64,000 nt of DNA from Baekduia soli. GTDB taxonomy: Bacteria; Actinomycetota; Thermoleophilia; Solirubrobacterales; Solirubrobacteraceae. Each line of letters starts with the position of its first letter. The stretch's first letter is position 1. A program made the translations under genes and the position numbers. The stretch is from positions 4,650,001-4,714,000 of the forward strand of contig NZ_CP042430.1 in the NCBI RefSeq assembly GCF_007970665.1, given 5' to 3'. Positions 56,940-60,006 of the stretch are shown one piece after another. The notes under the pieces were generated by a model. It did not search any database and was not told where the DNA came from. It worked only from the letters and a program-made list of their open reading frames with translations.

Positions 56940-57731
56940 TCAGCCGCCGGCGGCGCCGGCGGCGGGACCGACCACCTCGACGACCCACGCCCCGCCCGCC
57001 CGCGCGGGCTCGTGCAGCGCGACGCGGCCGGCGCCGTCGTCGGCCAGCGCCGCGACCTGCGCGGGCGTGGCCGGCGGGCGGGCGGCCTCCAGCACGCGGC
57101 GCGCGACCCGGCCGCGGACCGCCTTGGCCATGTGCGAGATCGGCCGGCCCTGCTCGTCGCGGGCTCGAACCTCGACGAGCGTCGCGGCGCGCGGGCGCCA
57201 GGCCGCCGCGTAGACGCCCGAGCGCAGGTCGAGCACGAGCTCGCCCGGCGCGTCGGGCAGGGCGGCGGCCAGGGCCGGCCGCCACCACGACGCCAGCCCG
57301 CCGCGCGGCGCCGGGCGCAGCGGGAGCCGCGCGCCCATGGCAAGGCGGTAGGCCGGGATCCGGTCCTCGAGCGCCACCACGCCCCACAGCGCGCTGGCGA
57401 CGAGCACCTCGGCGCCGGCGCCCCTCGCGGCGCCCGCGGGCAGGCTCGCCAGGTCGAGGTGCTGGTAGAGCACGCCGGTGTAGACCTCGCCGGCCGGGGC
57501 GGCGGGAGCCTGGAGCAGCCCGGCGTCGCGCTCGACCTCCGCGCCCTGGCCCGGGGAGAGCCCGAGCGCCGCCAGCGCGCGCGGGCGGGACCCCCGGGCC
57601 AGGCGCTCCAGCGCCCCGAGCGCGGCGCGGCGCTTGCGCGTCAGCGACGGGTGGACGAGCGCCTCGAGGTCGACCGGCGGACCGGAGGCGGGCGCGCGCT
57701 TGCCCTCGGACGGTGGCAGGAGCACGAGCAC
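56940..57731 (-). CDS. yaaA: Peroxide stress protein YaaA (DUF328/UPF0246)
   Basis: The 263-residue product starts LVLLPPSEGKRAPASGPPVD, the family signature, and continues with YTGVLYQHLDL near residue 83, VASALWGVVALEDRIPAYRLAM near 110 and a C-terminal ISHMAKAVRGRVARRVL near 198. In E. coli YaaA lowers free iron and binds DNA during peroxide stress. The GTG at 57731 follows a TAGGCT box at 8 nt. It is divergent from a small membrane-protein gene, and their two -10 boxes form one palindrome. Confidence 0.9.
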   Translation of the reverse strand: MLVLLPPSEGKRAPASGPPVDLEALVHPSLTRKRRAALGALERLARGSRPRALAALGLSPGQGAEVERDAGLLQAPAAPAGEVYTGVLYQHLDLASLPAGAARGAGAEVLVASALWGVVALEDRIPAYRLAMGARLPLRPAPRGGLASWWRPALAAALPDAPGELVLDLRSGVYAAAWRPRAATLVEVRARDEQGRPISHMAKAVRGRVARRVLEAARPPATPAQVAALADDGAGRVALHEPARAGGAWVVEVVGPAAGAAGG

Positions 57732-57737
57732 GGCGGC

Positions 57738-57760
57738 GGAGCCTAGACGCCCTAGGCTCC
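57738..57760. promoter_or_regulatory. Palindromic divergent promoter: two back-to-back TAGGCT boxes
   Basis: GGAGCCTAG (57738-57746) and CTAGGCTCC (57752-57760) form a perfect 9-bp inverted repeat. Read outward, each arm is TAGGCT placed 8 nt before a start codon: GTG at 57731 (yaaA) and ATG at 57767. A single short element therefore seems to provide both -10 boxes, and could also bind a dimeric regulator. Confidence 0.55.
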
Positions 57761-57766
57761 GCGGGG

Positions 57767-58017
57767 ATGGACGACGGGCCGCGCACCGGGGGCCTGCAGG
57801 CCCTGCTGCTGATCGTCGGGGCGACGGGCGCCCTGGTCGCGCAGTCCTCGGGGGCGTGGCCGGGCTGGCTCGTCGCCGCCGCGTCTCTCGCGCTCGTCGC
57901 GTGGCTGGAGCGGTACGCCCGCCGGCGCGTGCGCGAGGAGCGCGAGGAGGAGGAGCGGCGCCGCCGTGCCTCCATAGCGCACCTCGACTTCGAGGGGAGC
58001 GCCGGCCCCGAGGGCCG

Positions 58018-58021
<4 letters not shown>
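57767..58021 (+). CDS. Small membrane protein of unknown function
   Basis: The 84-residue product has two hydrophobic segments (LQALLLIVGATGALVAQSS at about 10-28 and WLVAAASLALVAW at about 34-46) and a strongly charged cytoplasmic tail (RRRVREEREEEERRRR). I do not recognise the family. The short spacing and positive-charge pattern suggest a hairpin anchor with a coiled tail. Its TAG stop overlaps the TAG of the convergent ftsH gene within one CTAG. Shared control with yaaA through the palindromic promoter is likely. Confidence 0.65.

Positions 58022-60006
<1,985 letters not shown>

What the first reader, a model, noticed from the sequence alone, without database searches (positions are those of the whole stretch)
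57738..57760. One palindrome supplies two divergent -10 boxes for yaaA and a small membrane protein
The perfect inverted repeat GGAGCCTAG/CTAGGCTCC puts TAGGCT exactly 8 nt before both start codons in a 35-bp gap. It could be a symmetric bidirectional promoter, where polymerase can fire only one way at a time, or an operator for a dimer that shuts both genes.
Basis: seen in the sequence. Interest (0 to 1): 0.55.

Follow-up and report, generated by a model that had tools for sequence, protein, structure and literature searches.

The report
Back-to-back promoters in short gap
In an actinobacterium, two genes that point away from each other share a 35-base gap that most likely holds two ordinary leaderless promoters back to back; the striking mirror symmetry is real but is missing from the two related genomes with the same gene pair, so it is probably not a switch.

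Summary
The palindrome is real and slightly longer than reported: 11-bp arms, window 57736-57762. TAGGCT lies 8 nt before both starts (yaaA GTG 57731, minus; small membrane-protein ATG 57767, plus). The -10 reading is well supported: in 1.264 Mb of this genome 236 of 1172 predicted genes carry TANNNT 6-10 nt before the start, against 4-21 per equal-width interval further upstream, and few of them have a Shine-Dalgarno-like motif (14 of 236 versus 261 of 936). This is the actinobacterial leaderless promoter. Divergent gaps with a box on both sides recur: 7 of 24 with gaps of 0-49 nt. The yaaA box is kept in related species; the perfect symmetry and the full plus-side box are not. No other genomic site matches within 3 mismatches. 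The dimer-operator idea is therefore not supported. Best reading: two overlapping, mutually exclusive leaderless promoters, with the palindrome a lineage-specific accident or an inverted copy of one box. It misses the published definition of a bidirectional promoter (shared -10, starts 7-25 bp apart): presumed starts are 36 bp apart. No transcript data were available.

The parts
57736..57762 (.). Perfect inverted repeat, 11-bp arms, 5-nt spacer: GCGGAGCCTAG-acgcc-CTAGGCTCCGC
   Evidence: Sequence; inverted-repeat scan; unique in genome
57740..57745 (-). TAGGCT, presumed -10 box of yaaA, 8 nt before its GTG
   Evidence: TANNNT at 7-10 nt before yaaA in 16 of 27 yaaA starts read, window included
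57753..57758 (+). TAGGCT, presumed -10 box of the small membrane-protein gene, 8 nt before its ATG
   Evidence: genome-wide leaderless signal; not matched by a full TANNNT in G001 or G006
57732..57766 (.). 35-nt gap between the two start codons
56940..57731 (-). yaaA, peroxide stress protein family, 263 aa, GTG start, no Shine-Dalgarno-like motif
   Evidence: Pfam PF03883 E=3.5e-32 over residues 1-217; start also chosen by own caller
57767..58021 (+). Small predicted membrane protein, 84 aa, ATG start; its TAG stop overlaps the ftsH stop codon on the other strand
   Evidence: Homologues at 61% and 50% identity in G001 and G006, alignment, own caller at the lower threshold; only a sub-threshold Pfam match to TgpA_N, 20.1 bits against a cut-off of 30; membrane nature judged from the hydrophobic sequence, no predictor run

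Best explanation
The gap holds two leaderless housekeeping-type promoters placed back to back. Each is essentially a TANNNT -10 box (TAGGCT) with no recognisable -35; RNA polymerase opens the DNA there and starts at or within a base or two of the start codon, so both mRNAs lack a leader and a Shine-Dalgarno site. Because the boxes are only 7 bp apart and face away from each other, one polymerase covers both, so only one direction can be loaded at a time. Whether that matters for expression depends on promoter strength. The perfect symmetry is not needed for this and is probably incidental or a by-product of how the second box arose. Shown: the sequence, its uniqueness in the genome, the genome-wide box statistics, conservation of the yaaA box in part of the family, and non-conservation of the palindrome. 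Inferred: transcription start sites, polymerase exclusion, leaderless translation.
For: TANNNT 6-10 nt before 236 of 1172 predicted starts versus 4-21 in other 5-nt intervals between 11 and 40 nt. Boxes and Shine-Dalgarno-like motifs avoid each other: 14 of 236 versus 261 of 936. No -35 consensus, by base composition, around 71 boxed starts. A box lies on 26 of 48 sides of divergent gaps of 20-49 nt, versus 34 of 103 same-strand gaps of that length and 36 of 342 same-strand gaps under 20 nt. 21 of 193 divergent pairs have both boxes. The yaaA box is kept at 8 nt in G001, G006, G002 and three g13 genomes while its middle letters vary. G001 shows the same leaderless signal, 44 of 223.
Against: No transcript data. 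The + side box is not conserved as TANNNT: G001 and G006 have TACAAG-N9 and TACAAC-N10, lacking the final T; TACAA[CG] has 0 hits at 6-10 nt among 936 unboxed genes of this genome, but only 4 hits at any spacing from 0 to 39, so that test is weak. In G001 my caller chose a GTG two codons upstream of the conserved ATG. G005 yaaA has no box, and 11 of 27 yaaA starts read have none at 6-10 nt. Divergent gaps under 20 nt had a box on 0 of 8 sides. Two-box pairs are only modestly more frequent than independence predicts (21 versus 15.7). Starts are from a home-made gene caller.
Confidence: 0.78

Rival explanations
1. Operator: the palindrome is the binding site of a dimeric regulator that shuts both genes by covering both -10 boxes.
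For: Perfect dyad symmetry centred between the boxes, in a typical operator position.
Against: Absent from both relatives with the same gene pair; no other site within 3 mismatches in 5.2 Mb, where the reversed-pattern control gave 3 per strand. The adjoining genes identified (a folP-type pterin-binding enzyme, yaaA, the small protein, ftsH) are not regulators; genes further out were not tested for this. Both arms consist of a box plus GC-rich spacer.
Confidence: 0.07
2. Inverted copy: the + side box is a recent inverted duplication (template switch) of the yaaA box that gave, or replaced, the small gene's promoter; the pair still works as two leaderless promoters.
For: Arms identical over 11 bp, including letters that vary freely elsewhere; of the other 20 two-box pairs none has a registered match above 7 letters; the gap is 7-8 nt longer than in the two relatives; TAGGCTCC stands at the same place before yaaA in two g13 genomes (L009, L010) without a mirror copy in the 60 nt printed.
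Against: Chance identity is not excluded (20 of 27,730 random box pairs share the 11-mer; the same hexamer alone is expected in about 1.2 of 21 pairs and was seen in 1); no close relative to polarise the change; GC-rich composition makes matches easy.
Confidence: 0.25
3. RNA hairpin or terminator: the arms act as a stem in read-through RNA from ftsH towards yaaA.
For: Stable stem, -22.7 (minus strand) and -24.4 kcal/mol (plus strand), z -3.3 and -3.6; G002 shows, by eye, a long inverted repeat between the ftsH end and yaaA.
Against: No T-run or terminator match in 57000-58600, no Rfam match in 57500-58100, no stable hairpin in the G001 or G006 gap (-4.0 and -3.6 kcal/mol, z +1.3 and +0.6); it sits between two start codons.
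Confidence: 0.05
4. The + side ORF is not expressed from this gap; only yaaA has a promoter here.
For: The + side TANNNT is not matched in G001 or G006; the small gene was found strongly in only 3 of 232 genomes of the order; the first gene-calling run missed it.
Against: Conserved reading frame with third-position excess in the window-G001 comparison (17, 12, 31); the caller picks ATG 57767 at the lower threshold; TAGGCT-N8-ATG fits the genome's leaderless rule.
Confidence: 0.13

Closest known systems
Leaderless TANNNT promoters of Actinobacteria (M. tuberculosis, PMC3898074; survey PMC3160421; passages of both seen)
   Same: TANNNT centred 7-12 bp before the transcription start, no -35 consensus, no leader, around a fifth of genes; a figure legend of PMC3898074 calls closely juxtaposed divergent promoters a common feature of M. 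tuberculosis.
   Different: Here two sit back to back with identical hexamers and flanks; no transcription start sites mapped.
Bidirectional promoters with a shared symmetric -10 (Warman and colleagues; PMC12825309 abstract and introduction read, PMC10268837 passages seen; the 2021 founding paper is not held)
   Same: Two opposed -10 elements so close that two polymerases could not bind together (inferred here).
   Different: The boxes are separate (7 bp between them) and the presumed starts are 36 bp apart; the published class has a shared -10 with starts most often 18 bp apart, and PMC10268837 counted pairs 7-25 bp apart.
Closely spaced divergent promoter pairs in general (recalled)
   Same: Divergent genes, overlapping polymerase footprints.
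   Different: Unusual only in the perfect arm identity.

Membership tests
Leaderless TANNNT promoter (actinobacterial) | TANNNT -10 box 6-10 nt before the start codon | tested here: met
   Both sides 8 nt; genome-wide peak at 6-10 nt
Leaderless TANNNT promoter (actinobacterial) | No Shine-Dalgarno | tested here: met
   None of GGAG, GAGG or AGGA in the 13 nt that end 3 nt before either start (read from the upstream strings printed); the GGAG of each arm lies further out
Leaderless TANNNT promoter (actinobacterial) | Transcript 5' end at the start codon | not testable with these tools
   No RNA data
Bidirectional promoter sensu Warman | -10 element shared | tested here: not met
   7 bp between the boxes
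Bidirectional promoter sensu Warman | Divergent start sites 7-25 bp apart (criterion of PMC10268837) | tested here: not met
   36 bp between start codons if both are leaderless; true start sites unmapped
Dimer operator | Dyad conserved in orthologous gaps | tested here: not met
   Absent in G001 and G006, the only two other genomes found with the pair
Dimer operator | Other copies in the genome (regulon) | tested here: not met
   None within 3 mismatches; a single-site operator would escape this test
Dimer operator | Bound by a protein | not testable with these tools
   Needs a binding experiment

The most novel reading that the evidence does not exclude
A new gene promoter was born by inverted copying of a neighbour's leaderless -10 box: in a TANNNT leaderless genome a single short template switch supplies box, spacing and start position at once, giving a small gene a divergent promoter that is obligatorily exclusive with yaaA.
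Probability: 0.15. Interest if true: 0.5.

Novelty: new member of a known kind. Interest (0 to 1): 0.25.

Why it matters
It shows how little DNA a divergent gene pair may need in a leaderless actinobacterial genome (35 bp for two promoters and two translation starts), and that eye-catching symmetry in such gaps can come from two -10 boxes, with no need for a regulator. The 21 two-box gaps found in a quarter of the genome give a ready panel for testing polymerase competition outside E. coli.

Tried and rejected
Operator regulon search with up to 3 mismatches: only the site itself. Sigma-70 with -35 and terminator scan of 57000-58600, and Rfam scan of 57500-58100: nothing. Named-species scan with YaaA: 4 loci, 3 titled Solirubrobacterales MAGs and one Sphaerisporangium; I did not read their upstream gaps (L101 has the contig length of G010:C1, whose yaaA was read as L013). 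Small-protein searches: 4 of 41 relatives and, with a three-row profile, 7 of 232 genomes of the order pass E 0.001. Only G000, G001 and G006 are strong; the weak ones (G018 at 5.2e-4, on a different contig from its yaaA; G097, G098, G102, G197 at 3.3e-4 to 8.7e-4) cover part of the protein and were not followed. The idea that TACAAG or TACAAC in the relatives is an equivalent box got no support from enrichment in this genome, but the test is weak. The same call shows that boxes lacking T1 ([ACG]A...T) are also enriched at 6-9 nt (51, 27, 24, 27 against mostly 5-28 elsewhere), so some imperfect boxes probably work; I see none of that form at 6-10 nt in G001 or G006.

Codon-position differences for the small gene, positions 1, 2, 3 of codons 2-57: window-G001 17, 12, 31; window-G006 17, 20, 23; G001-G006 14, 11, 17; only the first is clearly coding-like. 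Over all aligned codons: 26, 19, 46; 27, 31, 35; 28, 24, 27; set aside because the C-terminal alignment is loose. In one search I read minus-strand loci in the wrong orientation; one search replaces those rows (the three small-gene gaps are plus-strand and stand). Dropped before the yaaA count: L031, L033, L034 and L035 of the 30 loci, whose matches begin at residue 68-69, and the matches without a locus other than G002.

Literature: searches. One search (bidirectional promoter + leaderless + divergent transcription) listed one paper, on Pyrococcus; (Thermoleophilia + leaderless) listed one paper; neither was opened. I claim nothing wider about what is in print.

Full report
What is there. The window lies in a 5.21-Mb single-contig genome at 4,650,001-4,714,000. 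Three of the four named YaaA records found are titled Solirubrobacterales, so it is probably a Solirubrobacterales actinobacterium (inference); GC is 74% over the 464 kb first sampled. The reported palindrome is at 57738-57760 and extends to 11-bp perfect arms, 57736-57762. To the left, on the minus strand, lies yaaA (PF03883, E 3.5e-32), starting with GTG at 57731. To the right, on the plus strand, lies an 84-aa predicted membrane protein starting with ATG at 57767, whose stop codon overlaps the ftsH stop on the other strand (58018-58021). TAGGCT ends 8 nt before each start.

Are these -10 boxes? I took 60 stretches of 20 kb spread over the genome plus the window, 1.264 Mb or 24%, and called genes with a codon-usage caller that knows nothing about promoters (trained, rerun with lower thresholds). 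TANNNT lies 6-10 nt before 236 of 1172 predicted starts. Other 5-nt intervals give 19 (11-15), 8 (16-20), 4 (21-25), 10 (26-30), 21 (31-35) and 17 (36-40). An earlier run on 464 kb gave 71 of 328; the peak includes spacings 7, 8 and 10, which an in-frame TAG stop cannot explain, and in-frame ATG/GTG near the starts have 89 boxes at 6-10 nt in 1035 against 4 in 757 out-of-frame ones. No -35 consensus is visible in the base composition upstream of those 71 boxes. A Shine-Dalgarno-like motif accompanies 14 of 236 boxed genes and 261 of 936 unboxed genes. G001, a same-genus genome, shows the same peak in 240 kb: 44 of 223. This is the leaderless signature described for M. tuberculosis (TANNNT centred 7-12 bp upstream of the start site, no -35; PMC3898074, passages) and for Actinobacteria at large (PMC3160421, passages).

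Are such back-to-back pairs special? In the same 1.264 Mb there are 193 divergent neighbour pairs, 4 of them overlapping. 21 have a box on both sides (15.7 expected if sides were independent), and 7 of the 24 with gaps of 0-49 nt do. Boxes occur on 0 of 8 sides of divergent gaps under 20 nt, 26 of 48 for 20-49 nt, 46 of 110 for 50-99 nt and 38 of 220 for 100 nt or more; for same-strand neighbours the figures are 36 of 342, 34 of 103, 24 of 115 and 31 of 207. So the gap is a member of a recurring class. That the two hexamers are the same is what chance gives (5.7% of random pairs; 1 of 21 seen). What is unusual is that the match runs to 11 letters, where the next best of the 21 reaches 7; random pairs of boxes from this genome share the 11-mer in 20 of 27,730 comparisons.

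What do relatives show? The small gene was found strongly in 3 of 232 genomes of the order: G000, G001 and G006. In G001 and G006 it lies divergent to yaaA with gaps of 27 and 28 nt to the conserved ATG; in G001 my caller preferred a GTG two codons further upstream. The yaaA box persists at 8 nt with changed letters: TACCCT in G001, TAGCGT in G006. It is also TAGGGT-N8 in G002, where no small gene was found, and TAGGCT-N8 in the three g13 genomes read (L009-L011), without a mirror copy within the 60 nt printed. Counting all yaaA starts that I read, window included, 16 of 27 have TANNNT at 7-10 nt (15 of 25 loci, plus G002 but not G005). One search had found matches in 55 of 146 genomes and gave 30 loci; four of those loci (L031, L033-L035), whose match begins inside the protein, were left out. 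The 11 without a box include L015 and L017-L021 (genus g12), L014 (box at 12 nt) and G005. The plus-side box is not conserved: G001 has TACAAG-N9-ATG and G006 has TACAAC-N10-ATG. These share the TA with the yaaA box but lack the final T; TACAA[CG] is not seen at 6-10 nt among the 936 unboxed genes of this genome, though it is rare at every spacing. The palindrome is absent in both, and neither gap folds stably. These relatives are not very close (YaaA 65-66% identical), but the result is negative for a conserved operator.

Mechanism. Most likely each gene has its own leaderless promoter. The boxes are 7 bp apart and face outward, so a polymerase on one (footprint roughly -55 to +20, recalled) covers the other and both start codons. 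Only one direction can be occupied at a time; this is inferred. For the five E. coli bidirectional promoters they tested, Warman et al. report basal activity too low for such competition; it can arise when one side is strongly activated (PMC12825309, abstract and introduction). The gap does not fit their class strictly: the -10s are not shared and the presumed starts are 36 bp apart, whereas their Salmonella study counted start pairs 7-25 bp apart (PMC10268837, passages).

The symmetry. Three readings remain: coincidence in a GC-rich gap that must contain two TANNNT boxes; an inverted copy of one box by template switching; or an operator. The operator has the least support. The inverted copy explains why even the freely varying letters match and why the gap is 7-8 nt longer than in the relatives, but no close relative was found to test it.

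Verdict. The operator idea is not supported, and the whole is an ordinary, compact example of known leaderless divergent promoters with an unusually neat symmetry.

Noticed in passing
G000:C1 about 733,803 (L063, about 13,803): 21-nt divergent gap in which one 7-mer TAGTCTA supplies TAGTCT on one strand and TAGACT on the other: a candidate true shared-element bidirectional leaderless promoter (own gene calls).
   Followed up: no
G000:C1 about 4,507,228 (L098, about 17,228): 20-nt divergent gap with overlapping boxes in GGTACGGTACC (own gene calls).
   Followed up: no
L057 (G002:C52), upstream of yaaA: By eye, a long inverted repeat lies between what looks like the ftsH end and yaaA, where the window has the small gene.
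   Followed up: no
L047 (G000:C1:2950001-2970000): Only 20% of this stretch was called as coding, against 66-91% in the other 20 sources; possibly foreign DNA or RNA genes.
   Followed up: no
window 57767-58021: The small membrane-protein gene has a restricted distribution (strong hits in 3 of 232 genomes of the order), an N-terminus MDDGPRTGGL that is invariant in the three, and a stop codon that overlaps the ftsH stop on the other strand.
   Followed up: partly
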